Part shown: positions 11,432 to 18,487 of the stretch, one piece after another | Position numbering within the stretch: position 1 is the stretch's first letter | Layout of the letters: every line of letters begins with the position of its first letter | Origin: Phytophthora quininea | Taxonomy: Eukaryota > Oomycota > Peronosporomycetes > Peronosporales > Peronosporaceae | NCBI GenBank assembly: GCA_011947345.1 | Contig: JAAVTG010000693.1 | Span: 186,001 to 250,000 of the forward strand | Length of the DNA: 64,000 bases | Direction: 5' to 3' | The notes under the pieces: model-generated | Told to the model about the DNA's origin: nothing | What the model saw: only the letters and a program-made list of their open reading frames with translations | The model's database searches: none | Made by a program: the position numbers and the translations under genes

Positions 11432-12053
11432 ATGACGACAGCTCTCATCCCCATCGTATGGCTAAAGACCGACTGAACCCCGTCGATTCTTCTAATGCGT
11501 TTCTCCCTCCTAGGCGGACGGCTCCGAAGAGATCGAGGCCATATCCCTGGCCGACGTGCTGGTGCGCGGTGGTGTCGACGTCACGCTGGCGGTGGTGGGC
11601 AACAAGAAGGACAACGTCGTCACCATGTCGCGCGGCGTCAAAGTGCAGGGCGACGTGGCCATCGAGAGCTGCGCGGGCAAAAGCTTCGACCTGATCGTGT
11701 GCCCCGGCGGCATGCCCGGCGCCGAGCATCTGCGCGACTCCAAGGAGCTGGTGGCGCTGCTGCAGCAGCAGAAGCAGAGCGGCAAGTTCTATGGAGCCAT
11801 CTGTGCCGCCCCCGCGGTGGTGCTGCACACCCACGGACTGTTGGAGCCCGGCGCCGCCACGAGCTACCCGAGCTTCGAGCCAAAGATGACTGGTGCGGAC
11901 TACAAACACGAGGCGGTGGTGGTGAACGGGAAATGCGTCACCAGTCAGGGCCCCGGCACGGCCATGGCGATGGGCGTCAAGCTCGTGGAGCTGCTCTGCG
12001 GACAGGAGAAGGCGCAGCAAGTCGCCCAGGGACTGCTCACCCCGGCTCCGTAG
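11432..12053 (+). CDS. PARK7: DJ-1/PARK7-family protein
   Basis: Two exons: 11432-11455 (MTTALIPI) and 11514-12053, joined by a 58-bp intron, giving about 188 residues, the normal DJ-1 length. The conserved Glu is in ALIPIADGSEEIEA. The nucleophile Cys sits in the elbow GAICAAPAVVLHTHG. The C-terminal SQGPGTAMAMGVKLVE is typical of DJ-1 rather than of longer PfpI proteases or Hsp31. DJ-1 proteins are redox-sensing, with reported glyoxalase/deglycase-type activity; which applies here is not known. All family residues are present and the frame is clean. The last 142 bases of the gene and its 3' flank are duplicated at 14576-14888. Confidence 0.92.
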
Positions 12054-12226
12054 CGTGATGGCGGAAACGGTGGTGGATATGGTGAAAAGCCAGCAATCGT
12101 TGTATGACAGTGGTGACGGAAATCTATTTCTCACATGAACTGAGCTTTGGAGTTATTGATCCGACTGTCATCGCATTCGATTGCCAGACCAGTGTCTGCC
12201 ACGGTCCAGAACGATGTCTTCTCCAT
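11912..12226 (+). repeat. Direct repeat copy 1 (DJ-1 3' end and flank)
   Basis: This 315-bp stretch covers the last 47 codons of DJ-1 plus about 170 bp downstream. A nearly identical copy lies in the same orientation at 14576-14888. The two copies bracket the CRN gene. Identity is near 100% up to about 12195 and then falls off. Confidence 0.9.
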
Positions 12227-12336
12227 TCCCTCATAACCATTGGTCAGGATATGCCTTTACTTTTTGACCAATAGTGGCCCGTTACAGGAACAGGTTCTTC
12301 TTCTTCTCATTCGAGAATCTGCCGCCTGGAGGAAAG

Positions 12337-14466
12337 ATGGCGAAGCTCTTTTGTGCGATTGTTGGTGCGCAAGGAAGCGTTTTCCCGGTAGTCATCGATG
12401 AGAGCGAGTCAGTGGGGGACCTGAAGGAGGCGATTCAGAAGAAGAAGCCCGGCACGATCAAGTGTGAAGCCGACGAGATACAGCTCTTCCTGACGTGGAC
12501 GGAGAGCGACAGGTGGCTGCAGTCCCGCTCGGAAGACGCGAAGAAGCTCAAGAAGGGAGAGAAGACTGATTTAATCGAAGCGCTATTACACGAAGACAAA
12601 GAGTTGCAGGGGAGGATGGCCTTGCAGACGTGTTGGAGGATATGGACCCGCCAGCCACTGGTCAAATCCATGTACTGGTGGTGATTCCGGAGGGTTCTGA
12701 ATCAAAGCGTTCAGCAGAAGATGAACGTATTGGCGATGTCCTGAAAAATTGCGAGTTATGGAACCCAAGTTGGAAGCTATCAGTGCTTTCGTGCCCAAGA
12801 TGGAAGCTATCAGTGCTGTCGTGCCCAAGATGGAAGCTATCAGTGCTTTCGTGCCCAAGATGGAAGCTATCAGTGCTGTCGTGCCCAAGATGGAAGCTAT
12901 CAGTGCTGTCGTGCCCAAGACGCTAAACGACTTCAAAAAGTTATCTGTAAGTGAGAACGAGTTCAAACTCGACAGTCTGTCCACGACACATCAAAGTGAT
13001 AGCCCAATTGTCATGACACCTGGTTTGCACGAGTTTTGGAAGGGATTCGGTGAATTCCCCCGAGCTATTTCGTTCGGATGGAAGAAAGTGTGTTCTGGAA
13101 GGTGACGAAGGAACTGCTGTTCGCCAAGGATCGCGTTGTGATTATTGGCTCGCCGGGTGTCGGAAAGTCCTGCTTTCTGATGCTGATTGCATTCTATCTG
13201 GCGTGCATCGACCACAAGGAGGTGCTTGTCATACGTCGCTTGAAACAAAGGGATTTGGGGAACGTAGTGGTGTTTTTGATGGACGAGGATCGTACGCACG
13301 ACTGACGAATCTCTCACCGAGTGATCTGTTCGCCATCCGCGCCCAAGTTCGGGGTGCAATTGTTCTTGTTGATGGTTTTAATCAAAGCGACGTGAGCAAC
13401 CTGGGGAGCGGATATATGCCTTTCGATTTCCTTGCAACATCGTGCCAGTTTGATGCGAAACACGACGACAGTTCACGCATTGTGGTTTTGCCGGCGTGGC
13501 GCGATGTTGACCTGGTGAATTACGCCAAGTCAACTAACTGGGTGATCGAAACTGGATTGCGCAAGACCAAGAACTTGAAAGATACAACGTGGCCAAAACT
13601 TGTTAAGGAGCAGTACTACTACAGTGGCGGGAGTTTGCGCGAATTCTGTAAAGAACGGGAAGTGCTGAAGTCGCGAGTAGCTAGAGATTGTCGTTCCGTG
13701 AATAAAGCCCAAGCGTTTGATTTGGTGTACAACTATGGTGGGGGACAAAACCAGAGCCAAGTGGATCGACTGCGGCGTCACTATATCACTGACCGGCACA
13801 ATGAAAAGCACTACCATGACTCTAGATGGTGGAAACTATGTGTGGATTCAGGATATGTACTGAGCGAGTTGGGGCGGATTGTTGACATGGACAAGCAGCT
13901 AGAGTTTTTCAAGTATGGCAAATCTGTTGGTGCCGGTTTCTATGGCGTCGCATACGAACAATTGCTTCACAACGCCGTTCGTTGTGCATTCGCAAAACGT
14001 AAACCCATTGTGCTGAAGATGCGGGAGGGCTCAGCGTACGAAAAGATCGAAATTCGGGTGCCCCACGTTGTTTGCCAGGGCGAAGGTGAAGAGACGTGCT
14101 ACTCTTGCTTGACCACACTTGGAAAGGACACTTACTGGTACCCCAACTACCCGTTCTTCCCTTTCATCGACGCAGTGACCACGTGTGAAGCGTTCCCAAG
14201 GGAAGCAAACGTTCCGAAACAATCGTGGCTTACATTCAGGTGACAATTCGAAGCGAGAAAAAGTTCAAGAAAAAAGACTGCGTCGGCTGAACAAAGAGCT
14301 GGATAAAAACCAATCGCTGAAGGACATGAAGCGCGCGTTTTTGGTAGTAGGTCCTGACTCCAGTGTCTGCGAGAGATTTAATCTCCACGATGCGCCAGAC
14401 CCTAACACGTTTCTAGCGATGGTAAGCTGCTTCAACCCGGAGCAGCTGGAGCCTAAAGCAAGCTGA
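12337..14466 (+). pseudogene. CRN: Crinkler (CRN) effector gene, frame-broken
   Basis: CRN proteins are secreted oomycete effectors with a ubiquitin-like N-terminal LFLAK domain and variable C-terminal domains that act in host nuclei. The N-terminus begins MAKLFCAIVGAQGS; the LFLAK motif is degenerate (LFLTW), and a HVLV motif follows near 12670. Next come five 10-residue repeats, then a P-loop NTPase (GSPGVGKS near 13155) and a long C-terminal region whose end has the spacing of a restriction-endonuclease-like fold (acidic residue in FIDAVTTCE, then a Gln/Glu-x-basic strand). No signal peptide is obvious, which is common in CRNs. As given, the frame changes near 12615, 12745, 13062, 13275, 14218 and 14275, so no single long protein is encoded. 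These could be true decay or sequence error; homology resumes at once after each break. Confidence 0.85.
12770..12919 (+). repeat. Five tandem 30-bp units inside the CRN gene
   Basis: Five perfect-length units encode MEAISAFVPK or MEAISAVVPK (the first unit starts with Leu). Units differ by T or G at one codon, in the order Phe, Val, Phe, Val, Val, suggesting growth partly by 60-bp steps. It lies between the N-terminal CRN domain and the P-loop domain. Confidence 0.95.
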
Positions 14467-14575
14467 GATGCTTGTCGGTGAACTGAAAATGCATTGAGTT
14501 ATGATGTTTTCCAATATCTGGACTTTACCTGCATATGAATGTTTCGCTTTTTCGCGGTGTTGACTGCAAGCACTT
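14467..14575. other. Short AT-rich spacer after the CRN gene
   Basis: A 109-bp spacer between the CRN stop and the duplicated DJ-1 segment; no feature seen. The right-hand breakpoint of the duplication is at about 14575/14576. Confidence 0.5.
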
Positions 14576-14717
14576 GGCGGTGGTGGTGAACGGGAAATGC
14601 GTCACCAGTCAGGGCCCCGGCACAGCCATGGCGATGGGCGTCAAGCTCGTGGAGCTGCTCTGCGGACAGGAGAAGGCGCAGCAAGTCGCCCAGGGACTGC
14701 TCACCCCGGCTCCGTAG
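14576..14717 (+). pseudogene. DJ-1 3'-end fragment (duplicate)
   Basis: Encodes the last 46 residues of DJ-1 (AVVVNGKCVTSQGPGTAMAM onward) and the same stop codon, with no 5' part of the gene. It is a truncated copy created by the 315-bp duplication. It lacks the catalytic Cys and cannot be a functional DJ-1. An in-frame ATG at 14535 in unrelated sequence would give a 60-residue product but there is no sign that it is used. Confidence 0.9.
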
Positions 14718-14888
14718 CGTGATGGCGGAAACGGTGGTGGATATGGTGAAAAGCCAGCAATCGTTGTATGACAGTGGTGACGGAAATCTATTTCTCACAT
14801 GAACTGAGCTTTGGAGTTATTGATCCGACTGTCATCGCATTCGATTGCCAGACCAGTGTCTGCAACGGTACAGACGATGTCTTCTTCA
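14576..14888 (+). repeat. Direct repeat copy 2 (DJ-1 3' end and flank)
   Basis: Second copy of the segment at 11912-12226. Its right part overlaps the 3' end of the minus-strand six-cysteine gene, whose last ~30 codons lie in the repeat. Read backwards, copy 1 therefore also carries the tail of that gene, suggesting DJ-1 and the six-cysteine gene were originally convergent neighbours. Confidence 0.9.
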
Positions 14889-15298
14889 TGACGGCAGCTC
14901 TTGGAATGGGCGAGTCCTGCTAACGCTGCGACCAGCACCATGCCTGCGAGACAGCCACTGATGATCCCGTTGAATTTCCTGTACCTGGCTGGATCTGCGA
15001 TCTTGATCTGTGGTGTCGTGGCGCCTCTGAAGGATAGGACTGCTACGTGCGGGGACGAAGTCGTTATGCTGCCGCAGGTTACCAAGTGCTCGCTTTGTTC
15101 AGTCGACCACTTCTGGCAGTATCGGCAGGTGGTATTCGAGAAGCAGTCGGCGTCTTGAATCGAGCAGGAGGCGTCTTCAATGGCCGAAATGCCCATGAGC
15201 TGCTCGCTTAGAGTCACTTGTGTTTCACAACTAGAAGCTGCCGCCACTCCGATCCAAACGCAGGCAACAGCGAGCCACGTGACGCCAACGCAACGCAT
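14795..15298 (-). CDS. Secreted/membrane protein with one six-cysteine module
   Basis: Single exon, 167 residues, start at 15298 (MRCVGVTWLAVACVW). A signal peptide covers residues ~1-22. One module follows, from CETQVTLSEQLMGISA to SEHLVTC, with six cysteines in the spacing C-x20-C-x6-C-x5-C-x2-C-x13-C, including CRYCQKWSTEQS. A single transmembrane helix (GIISGCLAGMVLVAALAGLA, about residues 111-130) precedes a short tail, giving type I topology with the module outside. The module recurs in the genes at 15653-16753 and 18029-18487. I do not recognise the family. Asn-Thr-Thr offers an N-glycosylation site. The last ~30 residues fall in the DJ-1 direct repeat. Confidence 0.72.
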   Translation of the reverse strand: MRCVGVTWLAVACVWIGVAAASSCETQVTLSEQLMGISAIEDASCSIQDADCFSNTTCRYCQKWSTEQSEHLVTCGSITTSSPHVAVLSFRGATTPQIKIADPARYRKFNGIISGCLAGMVLVAALAGLAHSKSCRHEEDIVCTVADTGLAIECDDSRINNSKAQFM

Positions 15299-15652
15299 TT
15301 CGTCGATCTTGTGCAATCCGAAAGTGGTTTTGCAAAGCGATATAAAGCTACTACAGCGAAACCGCGAGAACTATGCGATTGTGTCAATCAACATGCGATC
15401 GAGCAAAAGTCAAGTGGCTGGTGGCACCGGCCTGATGGAAACTGAACGGCAAGATTTTGGCGGCGAATACCTTGGTCACTAACGTACAAGGCAGAAAGCA
15501 ATGGCATGAATGAGCATGTGAAAGCGGAAAAGAAATCAACTGAATGGAGAAAATGTCGAAGTGTATTCACGTATGTACTCCAGAAGGAGCAAGTCAAATG
15601 TTTGGGCTGTGCGCTCTACTTTACAGACTTCAGCAGCTCCGAATGAACAAGT
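15299..15652. other. Intergenic between six-cysteine genes
   Basis: A 354-bp stretch with no coding frame I can support. It should hold the promoter of the gene ending at 14795 and the 3' region of the gene ending at 15653, both minus strand. Confidence 0.45.
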
Positions 15653-16753
15653 TTAAAGTGTGGCGATGGACGATTGACTGACGACCATGACAAGTGAGCC
15701 GTGTCGTGGCGTCGGGAGGCGGTCGTGGGGAGTCAAGAGGCTGTTCGGGCCCTCGTTGGGCGTCATGATGTCCGGGTAGGTGGGATTGTATCGCTTGTAG
15801 ATGTACATGGCGCTCATGATGACGGCAGCAATAATCCCCGCGAAAACAGCCGCAACTGTGGTCACACTGATGGCAGAAGTATCTTTGGCTGCATCATTGA
15901 TAGTTTGCAGCTCTTGGGTTTTGGCCGTCATCTTGACCGCTGAGCTCTGGCCGATCACAGCGTTCGTGGTCGAGTCGATCTTGGCCGCTTCCGCGTTAGC
16001 TGGCGCACTTTCAATTCCCATGGACTTCAACACTTTGCAGCTGACGAGGAACTGGTTGTTTTCGTTCTTGTAGTTGCGGCACAGTCGGCAAGACGTACGA
16101 GCCGAGCAGCCCAGCAAAGTCGGATACCCCACATTGCAGCGGCTATCGGAGACATACGAGATCCCATCCAGTCCGGCACTGGCCACCACCGTCGAGCAAC
16201 TGGTGCTGGTCGACGCCACCGTCGCTGTAGGAGTAGTGGTGGAGGTGGAACTTCCTCCAAGAGTCGAGCACTTCATGAAGGCGCCACTCTGCGGGGTCGA
16301 CCATTTCTGGCAGAACCGGCACTGACCGTCCTTGAAGCAGCCCAAGCCGTTGGTGGAGCACGACGGACTCGATCCGGAGACTGCTGAAATACCAACACCA
16401 GAGTCGCCAATCGAGACGAGCGACGCACAGTCGACAGCACCCGCTTCAGCCGATTCTTTCGTCCCATTTGTCGACGAATTGGACGAGTACGTAGCTGACG
16501 GCAGCACTTCGGAGCACGGAAGCAAGTGCTCGCTCTCGGTGGTGTTGACCACCTTGCAGAATCGGCATTCCTCACCACCAGGGAAACATCCCAAGCCTCC
16601 GGAGACACAGGTAGCATCCTCCACCGCTGAAATGCCGCTACATTGGTCTCCAGTCGACACTCTGCTCGCACACGTGGTGGCTGTGACCAAGTTGGTTCCT
16701 GCATTGATCATGACCAGCGCAAGGCAGACACTGGAAAGGTGAAGAAGTTGCAT
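15653..16753 (-). CDS. Type I membrane protein with three six-cysteine modules
   Basis: Single exon, 366 residues, start at 16753 (MQLLHLSSVCLALVMINAG), chosen because a signal peptide follows at once; the upstream in-frame sequence looks non-coding. Three modules stand in tandem: residues ~28-80 (GISAVEDATC, GCFPGG, CRFCKVVNTTES), ~105-160 (GISAVSGSS, GCFKDGQCRFCQKWSTPQS) and a diverged one at ~185-240 (GISYVSDSRC, CRLCRNYKNE). Each has six cysteines with the shared spacing; the first has one extra. Ser/Thr-rich linkers with potential O- and N-glycosylation lie between modules. A transmembrane helix (VAAVFAGIIAAVIMSAMYIY) leads to a ~45-residue Pro-rich cytosolic tail. Looks like a cell-surface receptor or adhesin-like protein; the family is unrecognised and the function unknown. 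Confidence 0.75.
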   Translation of the reverse strand: MQLLHLSSVCLALVMINAGTNLVTATTCASRVSTGDQCSGISAVEDATCVSGGLGCFPGGEECRFCKVVNTTESEHLLPCSEVLPSATYSSNSSTNGTKESAEAGAVDCASLVSIGDSGVGISAVSGSSPSCSTNGLGCFKDGQCRFCQKWSTPQSGAFMKCSTLGGSSTSTTTPTATVASTSTSCSTVVASAGLDGISYVSDSRCNVGYPTLLGCSARTSCRLCRNYKNENNQFLVSCKVLKSMGIESAPANAEAAKIDSTTNAVIGQSSAVKMTAKTQELQTINDAAKDTSAISVTTVAAVFAGIIAAVIMSAMYIYKRYNPTYPDIMTPNEGPNSLLTPHDRLPTPRHGSLVMVVSQSSIATL

Positions 16754-17064
16754 CCTGTTGCTGAAGGTTGTAAACGACGGAGAGATCTCGAGGCTGTGGA
16801 GCCTGCTGCTGACGGTTGTCGAGTAGGAAGTGGACTGCCAATTGGCGAATGATCCACACCGCAAGCCAATGAAGGATCTCTTCAATGCAGGCGAGACATA
16901 GCAGTAGGGACATCTCGAAACGAATGCAAGCGGATCAATCCCAACGAGCAATTTTAGGAGGAACATTCCTCGCTTCAACGTCACGTCAACGAGTCCTAGT
17001 GACTTGGTGTTCAGCGTTTGAAACGATTTCAATGCAACGGATGCCCGCCCCAACGCAACAATAG
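16754..17064. other. Intergenic, promoter of the three-module gene
   Basis: About 310 bp. Open frames here lack coding character and no conserved motif is seen. Confidence 0.4.
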
Positions 17065-17904
17065 TCAATGGCACCACCCGATCTCATGCCCATTTGCCAT
17101 TGGGGGCTCCAGGAAGCCCCGGAAAGTGAGCGTCTCGGCATCCCATCTAGCTCCGTAGCCGAGTTTGTTCCTGATCTCCATCGTCGCATGACCGTGAGGC
17201 AGACTGTGGATGTTCTTCCAAGTGGCAGTTCTCAGCAGCTCGTGGACTTTGCGGTCGGCCTGAGCATTCTTAGCCGCGTCGTTGCCTTTGAGCTGGCCCC
17301 ACCATCCACTGGAGCTCCTAGCGCAATGCTTGCTGAAAGCTCGGGCGCCGACAGTCAGTGGTTCGCTTGGAGTATGGCGCTGCTGGAAGGCGGCAAGACA
17401 CTGACGACGAGTGAGTGGGGCCAGCGTCCGACTCCCCACCGTCTGCTGGAAGCCGAGCAGCGTCAACAGTCCACGAGCACCACCCAGACAGTCCACAAGT
17501 GACTTAGTAGACTCAAGAACTTGTTCTTTCGAGCTGGTAGTAACTGCAGCGACGAACGCGTGAATGGTGTCGATAGAGACGTCCAGAACTCGGTCTCTGC
17601 TGGAGGACTCGGCGGTGACGCCGTCAATTGTCGAGGCTGGAGGGGTCCCTGTTTCTTCTGTGGTCGACGATTCCAGTGGGTTCGTTCCAGTTTGATGCCA
17701 AGTATCAACCACCACCGCTAGCTGAGTCACGTAAGACGCGTCTGCTACACTCCCCAGAACTTGGTGGACTGTCACGAGACTGTCCTCGGTGGCTTGCAGT
17801 ATCTGCGTTCGGAATGCTGCTGGGTCTTCCGCGTCTTGCACGGAGAAATCGCTGGCTAAATACTCGCGGAAAGCAGTCTCAATGCATGCCAAAGAAGAAA
17901 TCAT
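17065..17904 (-). CDS. Unrecognised protein, ~279 residues
   Basis: Uninterrupted frame from ATG 17904 (MISSLACIETAFREYLASDF) to the stop at 17065. It is mostly helical by eye: an N-terminal amphipathic part (TEDSLVTVHQVLGSVADASY), a Ser/Thr-rich middle (ESSTTEETGTPPASTIDG), a helical block (DTIHAFVAAVTTSSKEQVLE) and a distinctive C-terminus (KNIHSLPHGHATMEI, GYGARWDAETLTFRGFLEPP, HEIGWCH). The Gly/Trp/His-rich C-terminus looks like a conserved motif rather than random sequence, but I do not know the family. No signal peptide or membrane helix is seen with this start; a start at 17970 (MYYLLSLLCHASLHSY) would add a hydrophobic leader. It lies between two six-cysteine genes on the same strand. 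No function assigned. Confidence 0.55.
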   Translation of the reverse strand: MISSLACIETAFREYLASDFSVQDAEDPAAFRTQILQATEDSLVTVHQVLGSVADASYVTQLAVVVDTWHQTGTNPLESSTTEETGTPPASTIDGVTAESSSRDRVLDVSIDTIHAFVAAVTTSSKEQVLESTKSLVDCLGGARGLLTLLGFQQTVGSRTLAPLTRRQCLAAFQQRHTPSEPLTVGARAFSKHCARSSSGWWGQLKGNDAAKNAQADRKVHELLRTATWKNIHSLPHGHATMEIRNKLGYGARWDAETLTFRGFLEPPMANGHEIGWCH

Positions 17905-18028
17905 GGCCAGGTCTCTGCAAATGTAGGAATGAAGTGACGCGTGGCAGAGCAGTGATAAAAGATAATACATTTTGTGTCTGACGGCTTCATGGCGTTTGTT
18001 GGAGCTCTGTCTTGAACTTACGTTGGTC

Positions 18029-18487
18029 TTAAGCAATAGTTAGCTCGCAGTCGTCCGAGCTGGTGTTGGTCGTTGGTGCAACGGTGGGTGCCCTGGTTGT
18101 AGGGACTGGTGTTGGAGCCACACTTGGTGCTGTAGTGGTGGGTGCCCTGGTCGTAGGGACTGGTGTTGGAGCCACACTTGGTGCTGTAGTGGTGGGTGCC
18201 CTGGTCGTAGGGACTGGTGTTGGAGCCACACTTGGTGCGGTGGTGGTGTTGCACGGGATAAAGTGGGCGCTCTGTGTCGTGTTCCACGCTTTGCAAAAGC
18301 AGCACTGCGAGCCATCGCCAAAGCAGCCCAAGCCACCAGCGGTGGGGCAGGTTGGAGAGGCCAATGCCGAGATGCCAACACCTTGGTCGCCCAACGACAC
18401 GCGGTCCGCACAGGAGAGCGCGTTGGTCACGTGAATGTCCGTCCAAAGAAACAGCAGAGCCAAGCTGGTGACTTGAAGCACACGCAT
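18029..18487 (-). CDS. Secreted six-cysteine module protein with Thr/Pro repeats
   Basis: Single exon, 152 residues, start at 18487 (MRVLQVTSLALLFLW) giving a signal peptide of about 24 residues. One module (CADRVSLGDQGVGISAL ... GCFGDGSQCCFCKAWNTTQS) has the six-cysteine spacing plus one extra Cys (CCFC). It is followed by three 18-residue units of TTTAPSVAPTPVPTTRAP, a mucin-like stretch likely to be O-glycosylated, and a short tail ending DDCELTIA. No transmembrane helix or clear GPI signal is visible, so the product may be soluble or wall-bound. A downstream exon cannot be excluded. Confidence 0.68.
   Translation of the reverse strand: MRVLQVTSLALLFLWTDIHVTNALSCADRVSLGDQGVGISALASPTCPTAGGLGCFGDGSQCCFCKAWNTTQSAHFIPCNTTTAPSVAPTPVPTTRAPTTTAPSVAPTPVPTTRAPTTTAPSVAPTPVPTTRAPTVAPTTNTSSDDCELTIA
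18084..18245 (-). repeat. Three 54-bp tandem units (Thr/Pro mucin-like)
   Basis: Three nearly identical 54-bp units encode the Thr/Pro/Val/Ala-rich 18-residue repeat in the small six-cysteine protein. Differences are one or two bases per unit, so array length may vary between strains. Confidence 0.92.

What the first reader, a model, noticed from the sequence alone, without database searches (positions are those of the whole stretch)
14795..18487. Cluster of surface/secreted proteins built from an unrecognised six-cysteine module
Three neighbouring minus-strand genes encode signal-peptide proteins with one, three and one copies of the same module. All five copies fit C-x(19-22)-C-x(6-9)-C-x(5-6)-C-x(2)-C-x(13)-C, with GIS(A/Y), GCF and CRFC-like cores. 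The same domain appears as type I membrane protein (one module), type I membrane protein (three modules) and soluble mucin-tailed protein. I cannot match it to any family I know. It sits beside a CRN effector, as expected of a fast-evolving host-facing or adhesion family.
Basis: partly seen in the sequence, partly recalled or inferred. Interest (0 to 1): 0.8.

Follow-up and report, generated by a model that had tools for sequence, protein, structure and literature searches.

The report
Oomycete surface proteins, uncatalogued cysteine module
Three neighbouring genes of a water mould encode apparent cell-surface or secreted proteins built from a small cysteine-rich building block that we could not match to any named protein domain; related proteins found in other water moulds range from single copies to eleven-copy giants and include one membrane protein kept across distant lineages.

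Summary
Five copies of one six-cysteine module lie in three intact minus-strand genes (14795-18487). A profile built without window modules finds these five (35-63 bits); the next-best place in the window scores 7.4 and random controls at most 14.7. The module looks like an uncatalogued extracellular domain: nothing over cut-off in Pfam or NCBIfam, no significant PDB-sequence or Foldseek match; AlphaFold gives a fair model (pLDDT 86). It is a family: 73 further proteins were found, and all 52 that carry an organism name are oomycete, with up to 11 modules. The same genome has further clusters, one with a nine-module membrane protein. 'Fast-evolving, host-facing' is not supported for the three-module protein: it has orthologues down to Globisporangium and Albugo, a strongly conserved third module and a conserved tail. 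The one-module membrane protein is a counterpart of a two-module P. sojae protein and lacks that special module. Best reading: spore-stage, membrane-anchored modular mucins for adhesion or matrix anchoring; function is inferred. The closest described family, PPMUCL mucins, could not be compared.

The parts
14795..15298 (-). P0001: one-module type I membrane protein, 167 aa, stop included; counterpart of the two-module P. sojae protein P0026
15074..15229 (-). module of P0001
   Evidence: 55.6 bits with the window-free profile
15653..16753 (-). P0002: three-module type I membrane protein, 366 aa, stop included; orthologues through Phytophthora to Globisporangium and Albugo
16514..16672 (-). module 1 of P0002 (7 cysteines)
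   Evidence: 63.0 bits
16268..16429 (-). module 2 of P0002
   Evidence: 53.6 bits; modelled
16037..16198 (-). module 3 of P0002, the NQ[FY]L subtype, with counterparts down to Albugo
   Evidence: 35.0 bits; clade of 29 modules, support 0.954
15656..15706 (-). conserved C-terminus of P0002 (residues 350-366), predicted cytoplasmic
   Evidence: 89.0% mean pairwise identity among Phytophthora-type orthologues
15789..16038 (.). peak of difference between the two contig copies: mainly stalk and membrane segment of P0002, 44 of 250 columns differ
   Evidence: only two copies of the stretch found in the genome
18029..18487 (-). P0003: one module plus Thr/Pro-rich tail, no membrane segment by hydropathy, 152 aa, stop included
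18251..18412 (-). module of P0003 (7 cysteines)
   Evidence: 49.4 bits

Best explanation
The locus encodes three members of an oomycete family of modular surface glycoproteins. The unit is a roughly 50-residue secreted domain, predicted as short helices and a small sheet, presumably stabilised by three disulfides. Modules are strung on linkers that are often Ser/Thr/Pro-rich and probably O-glycosylated, and are anchored by one membrane helix with a short cytoplasmic tail, or released (P0003). I think they coat the spore-stage cell and hold it to its own wall, matrix or a surface: modules bind, linkers give reach. In P0002 the conserved third module would bind a conserved, probably non-host ligand, and the conserved tail (R-x-x-S-hydrophobic, then an IA-containing hydrophobic end) would dock a cytoplasmic partner under kinase control. 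Shown: the modules, the architectures, the family, the conservation pattern. Inferred: disulfides, glycosylation, surface location, stage, ligand, tail partner.
For: Module reality and controls. Family and distribution. 288 complete distinct modules have all six cysteines and one lacks C2 alone; two modules of P0041 lack C2 and C3 together, weak evidence for a C2-C3 bond. Fair module model; three better-predicted modules with low-confidence linkers and a helix at 300-322 in P0002. Ser+Thr+Pro: 74% in P0002 linker 2, 60% in the P0003 tail, 41% between modules against 20% inside modules for the nine-module protein. Modules and tail end conserved, linker 1, stalk and membrane segment not. R-x-x-S-hydrophobic in the tails of 26 of 27 aligned orthologues. 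Database names with 'sporangia induced' for P. infestans, P. megakarya, P. palmivora and Albugo relatives.
Against: No expression, localisation or binding data for any member were seen; 'sporangia induced' is only a database name. The passages that I saw in papers on spore transcriptomes, secretome and adhesion do not mention these genes. Linker 1 (39% S/T/P) and the stalk (23%) of P0002 are not strongly mucin-like. For the window's P0002, linker 2 is as close to the orthologues (64.1%) as module 1 (63.6%), so conservation is not confined to modules. Database names of other members point elsewhere: 'RxLR-like' (P0046) and 'TKL protein kinase' (P0067, no kinase domain listed).
Confidence: 0.55

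Rival explanations
1. P0002 is a receptor or co-receptor: module 3 senses a soluble cue in the spore stage and the tail passes it to a kinase or scaffold.
For: Module 3 is the most conserved module (82.4% pairwise) with several positions invariant in all 27 aligned sequences including Albugo, and the tail end reaches 89.0%; the subtype is one clade.
Against: No catalytic domain found in P0002; the tail is about 50 residues and low-confidence in the model; no partner known; the tail end falls to 37.0% against Globisporangium and Albugo.
Confidence: 0.22
2. Host-facing adhesin or secreted effector family shaped by the host.
For: Multi-copy clusters with near-identical tandem modules; relatives without a membrane segment by hydropathy, some perhaps partial models; a Crinkler gene next door; one Plasmopara member is named RxLR-like in a database; dN/dS near 1 between the copies of P0001 and P0002.
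Against: Orthologue in Albugo, relatives in Pythium insidiosum and P. oligandrum; modules of P0002 conserved and nearly identical between the two copies.
Confidence: 0.18
3. The family is a branch of the already described PPMUCL mucin-like family of Phytophthora parasitica biofilm.
For: Both are oomycete and mucin-like; the PPMUCL paper's title calls its family oomycete-specific (reference lists), and a citing paper says that the products accumulate on the biofilm surface (passage).
Against: PPMUCL is recalled as one conserved N-terminal domain plus a mucin domain, not repeated six-cysteine modules; no name shown for the relatives found contains 'mucin' (names are cut short there). The original paper is not held, so the comparison was not made.
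Confidence: 0.15
4. Open frames without meaning, or decaying copies.
For: Some relatives elsewhere in the genome lie in frames that break.
Against: The three frames are intact in the window and in the C167 copy; module scores far above controls; orthologues.
Confidence: 0.01

Closest known systems
PPMUCL1/2/3 mucin-like proteins of Phytophthora parasitica (Larousse et al. 2014; title and citing passages seen, paper itself not held)
   Same: Oomycete-specific by its title, mucin-like, on the biofilm surface according to a citing paper.
   Different: Recalled as a single conserved N-terminal domain followed by a mucin domain; here repeated six-cysteine modules and often a membrane anchor. Sequences not compared.
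CAR90 and other repeat-containing proteins of P. infestans (named in a passage)
   Same: Repetitive, mucin-like, thought to serve adhesion.
   Different: Their repeats are recalled as short peptides without a cysteine module; not compared here.
TNFR cysteine-rich domains (UniRef names several orthologues 'TNFR-Cys domain-containing')
   Same: Small cysteine-rich extracellular modules in type I membrane proteins (recalled); two weak Pfam hints of TNFR type: 15.5 bits against a cut-off of 24.9 for P0001 and E 0.044 for 1 of 33 modules.
   Different: Both hints are below significance; the recalled PROSITE pattern fits 0 of 77 proteins.
Sushi, PAN, EGF, elicitin and PcF/SCR proteins of oomycetes
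   Same: Secreted, cysteine-rich, some adhesive (passages).
   Different: No Pfam hit to these families for 33 modules or for the 13 family proteins scanned (3, 10).

Membership tests
The oomycete module family described here | Six cysteines with C-x2-C and x13 spacing plus GIS-, GC- and CRFC-like cores, above profile controls | tested here: met
TNFR-Cys | Pfam TNFR-type score over cut-off | tested here: not met
   only sub-threshold hints
   0 of 77 proteins
PAN/Apple, elicitin, PcF | Pfam match | tested here: not met
   no such family listed at E up to 1 for 33 modules or up to 10 for the window proteins
PPMUCL mucin-like family | Conserved N-terminal domain of PPMUCL1-3 (recalled) | not testable with these tools
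   paper not held
Membrane-anchored mucin-like proteins | Ser/Thr/Pro-rich stretches outside the folded modules | tested here: met
   strong in the P0003 tail, P0002 linker 2 and the nine-module protein, weak in linker 1 and the stalk of P0002
Membrane-anchored mucin-like proteins | Single C-terminal membrane segment with short tail | tested here: met
   P0001, P0002 and many relatives by hydropathy; nine-module protein; not P0003
Membrane-anchored mucin-like proteins | O-glycosylation | not testable with these tools
   sequence only

The most novel reading that the evidence does not exclude
The three-module protein is the conserved core member of an oomycete-specific domain family with an undescribed fold: a spore-stage receptor or anchor whose third module recognises an oomycete-internal ligand and whose conserved tail is switched by a basophilic kinase, beside which multi-module surface mucins expanded.
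Probability: 0.25. Interest if true: 0.75.

Novelty: new variant of a known kind. Interest (0 to 1): 0.5.

Why it matters
Oomycete adhesion and wall-matrix proteins are mostly described by a few domains and repeats (Sushi, CBEL/PAN, mucin-like repeats; passages). A module that the searched libraries lack, with a member conserved across Phytophthora, Globisporangium and Albugo, gives annotation a new domain model, and a defined ectodomain and tail that can be tested for a role in spores.

Tried and rejected
Rejected: chance open frames; TNFR, EGF, PAN, elicitin and PcF membership by Pfam or recalled patterns; a viral counterpart by fold (BFVD, best E 3.9); gene conversion of the divergent stalk and membrane segment from a third locus (only the two copies found). 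Profiles against PDB sequences gave only chance rows (zinc-finger fragments at E 0.1-0.2, a sodium-channel subunit at 0.97).

Led nowhere: own-genome search with PF00954, a first probe (rang nowhere, controls included, so uninformative about that family). The alignment search A2 scored the 7996 candidates sharing most words and gave 8 hits. My loose elicitin-like pattern matched 23 of 77 proteins but spans two modules and means nothing. Literature searches for locus tags and 'TNFR-Cys' listed no paper. Short orthologues of P0001 and P0003 (under about 200 aa) could not appear, because the protein searches admit only certain lengths; their absence is not claimed. No Saprolegniales among the named hits, which does not prove absence.

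Full report
What is there. The window is part of an 87.2 Mb genome in 993 contigs (C687:186001-250000); the protein relatives and the neighbouring Crinkler gene mark it as an oomycete. Three minus-strand open frames lie at 14795-18487: P0001 (167 aa), P0002 (366 aa) and P0003 (152 aa). Between P0003 and P0002 lies another frame, P0004 (323 aa), without Pfam or NCBIfam match. P0001 and P0002 each have one C-terminal hydrophobic segment followed by a short tail; P0003 has none and ends in a Thr/Pro-rich tail.

Is it more than chance. A profile built from 23 modules, without the window's five and five from Phytophthora relatives, recovers the five at 35.0-63.0 bits; the next-best place in the window scores 7.4; 30 Markov windows give at most 14.7 and 200 residue shuffles of the three proteins at most 12.6. 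The 23 modules were themselves found through P0002, so this is a strong but not an independent test.

The family elsewhere. Three protein searches gave 73 proteins besides the window's own (P0005-P0077). By my hand count of those tables 52 carry an organism name (one, P0061, only a code that I read as P. capsici) and all 52 are oomycetes: Phytophthora, Nothophytophthora, Plasmopara, Pythium insidiosum, P. oligandrum, Globisporangium and Albugo laibachii; 21 are unnamed. In some searches only about 8,000 candidates sharing most words were scored, and length limits apply, so the lists are lower bounds. Relatives carry up to eleven modules (P. nicotianae P0040). Of 330 distinct module rows, 288 were complete with all six cysteines, one lacked C2, and 41 were partial or unaligned at one or more of the six columns; among these, two modules of P0041 lack both C2 and C3, which weakly suggests that these two pair.

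The same genome. Searches with P0002, P0032 and P0003 found further members on C167, C197, C278, C571, C117 and C126 (some weak low-complexity matches to linkers elsewhere were set aside). C167 matches the window over 5,977 aligned bases at 97.9% including flanks; C278 matches C197 (98.1% over 4,391 and 95.4% over 826 bases); C117 and C126 match stretches of C571 mostly at 93-99%, and C571 itself holds an inverted pair of 2.9 kb at 99.6%. I read the small contigs as second haplotypes, though duplications are not excluded. One C197 frame of 895 codons holds nine modules and a C-terminal hydrophobic segment. Several copies on C278, C117, C126 and C571 lie in frames that break. In the frames selected by pattern, 74 module instances were scored, haplotypes and overlapping frames counted and P0003 not included.

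Orthology. In 27 aligned sequences P0002 has counterparts from Phytophthora to Globisporangium and Albugo (P0005, P0025-P0028, P0031, P0032 and P0036-P0039 were left out as different, partial or fused architectures). Among the 19 other Phytophthora-type sequences mean pairwise identity is 72.0, 77.2 and 82.4% for modules 1-3, 36.1 and 62.4% for the linkers, 44.2% for the stalk, 54.7% for the membrane segment and 89.0% for the last 17 residues, over the pairs with enough coverage. The window's P0002 against these: modules 63.6, 64.4, 75.9, linkers 27.0 and 64.1, stalk 26.9, membrane segment 23.6, tail end 89.5%. Against Globisporangium and Albugo: modules 35.0, 45.8, 53.4, tail end 37.0%. The tail motif R-x-x-S-hydrophobic occurs in 26 of 27; P0030 lacks it. 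In a tree of 285 modules the P0002 modules lie nearest their positional counterparts, and the 29 modules with NQ[FY]L form one clade (support 0.954; midpoint rooting).

P0001 and P0003. P0001 aligns with the P. sojae two-module protein P0026 from signal region through module 1 (45% over 84 residues) and again over stalk, membrane segment and tail, but has no second, NQFL-type module; whether it was lost here or gained there is open. In the module tree P0001's module sits on a long branch whose six nearest neighbours do not include P0026, so the orthology rests on the full-length alignment. P0003's module lies nearest P0002 module 2. In the P. megakarya entry P0005 a three-module and a two-module part lie in one protein, and the two P. 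sojae relatives P0018 and P0026 come from contigs of equal length, so the pairing of the two genes may be old; not checked at DNA level.

The two copies. Between window and C167, P0002 differs by two non-synonymous and no synonymous changes in 161 module codons and by none in the tail, but heavily in stalk and membrane segment (44 of 250 columns differ at 15789-16038); overall dN/dS is 1.06 for P0002, 1.21 for P0001 (five changes only) and 0.36 for P0003. The P0002 ratio comes from the stalk and membrane segment, not from the modules. No third copy of that stretch was found.

Structure. The module model has mean pLDDT 85.8 and pTM 0.70, in the order helix-helix-strand-helix-strand-helix, all elements short. 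Foldseek against the PDB found nothing better than E 8.9, the second aligner nothing among the 2 chains it was given, BFVD nothing better than E 3.9. The P0002 model has mean pLDDT 63.5 and pTM 0.28, with the modules mostly at 59-92 per ten-residue block and linkers, stalk and tail low; PDB searches gave nothing (best E 5.9). Small disulfide domains are hard for these searches, so this does not prove a new fold.

Known families. Among 33 modules Pfam gave only single-member hints (best E 0.044, one of them TNFR-type); the window proteins had only sub-threshold hints, one of TNFR type at 15.5 against a cut-off of 24.9 bits. Ten relatives had the PT disordered-repeat model (over its cut-off in P0045) or chance hints. 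UniRef's 'TNFR-Cys' name is not borne out by the recalled PROSITE pattern (0 of 77). In ten searches of the PubMed Central library I saw no description of this module; I saw listings with abstract starts, and passages, not whole texts, of PMC3091767, PMC5322657, PMC3597505, PMC7409359, PMC7718214, PMC10351607, PMC7355776, PMC5434524, PMC5268404 and PMC4111850. Supplements and most subscription papers were out of reach. The PPMUCL family (Larousse et al. 2014, recalled plus citing passages) is the closest described one and could not be compared.

Function. The names with 'sporangia induced' in P. infestans, P. megakarya, P. palmivora and Albugo entries point to the spore stage but are names only. 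Architecture, linkers, anchor and conservation fit spore-stage surface anchoring or adhesion. The conserved third module and tail leave a receptor role open. The host-facing reading is the weakest of the three for P0002 but stays open for the multi-module expansions, which show near-identical tandem modules.

Noticed in passing
11892-12226 and 14556-14889: A direct repeat of 335 bases at 96.7%. The second copy includes the last 95 bases of the P0001 gene and a piece like the end of the DJ-1/PfpI gene; the first overlaps the end of that DJ-1 gene. The Crinkler gene lies between the copies, as if a duplication bracketed it.
   Followed up: partly
12274-14243: Crinkler N-terminal domain (PF20147) in the plus-strand frame 12274-12684, with a further long frame at 13050-14243 without Pfam match.
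   Followed up: partly
15789-16038: Sharp peak of difference between the two contig copies, mainly in the stalk and membrane segment of P0002, with little difference on either side and no third copy found in the genome.
   Followed up: partly
12749-13105: Repeated peptide of the type PKMEAISAVV in a frame next to the Crinkler domain.
   Followed up: no
L037 (C197:279759-282443): One open frame of 895 codons with nine modules and a C-terminal hydrophobic segment; the C278 copy is split over two frames.
   Followed up: partly
L043 (C571:359505-361202): Relative with a tandem repeat of about 123 bases in a Thr/Pro-rich linker; by eye the C126 copy looks different in repeat number.
   Followed up: no
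17065-18036: P0004, a 323-codon open frame between the module genes without Pfam or NCBIfam match.
   Followed up: no
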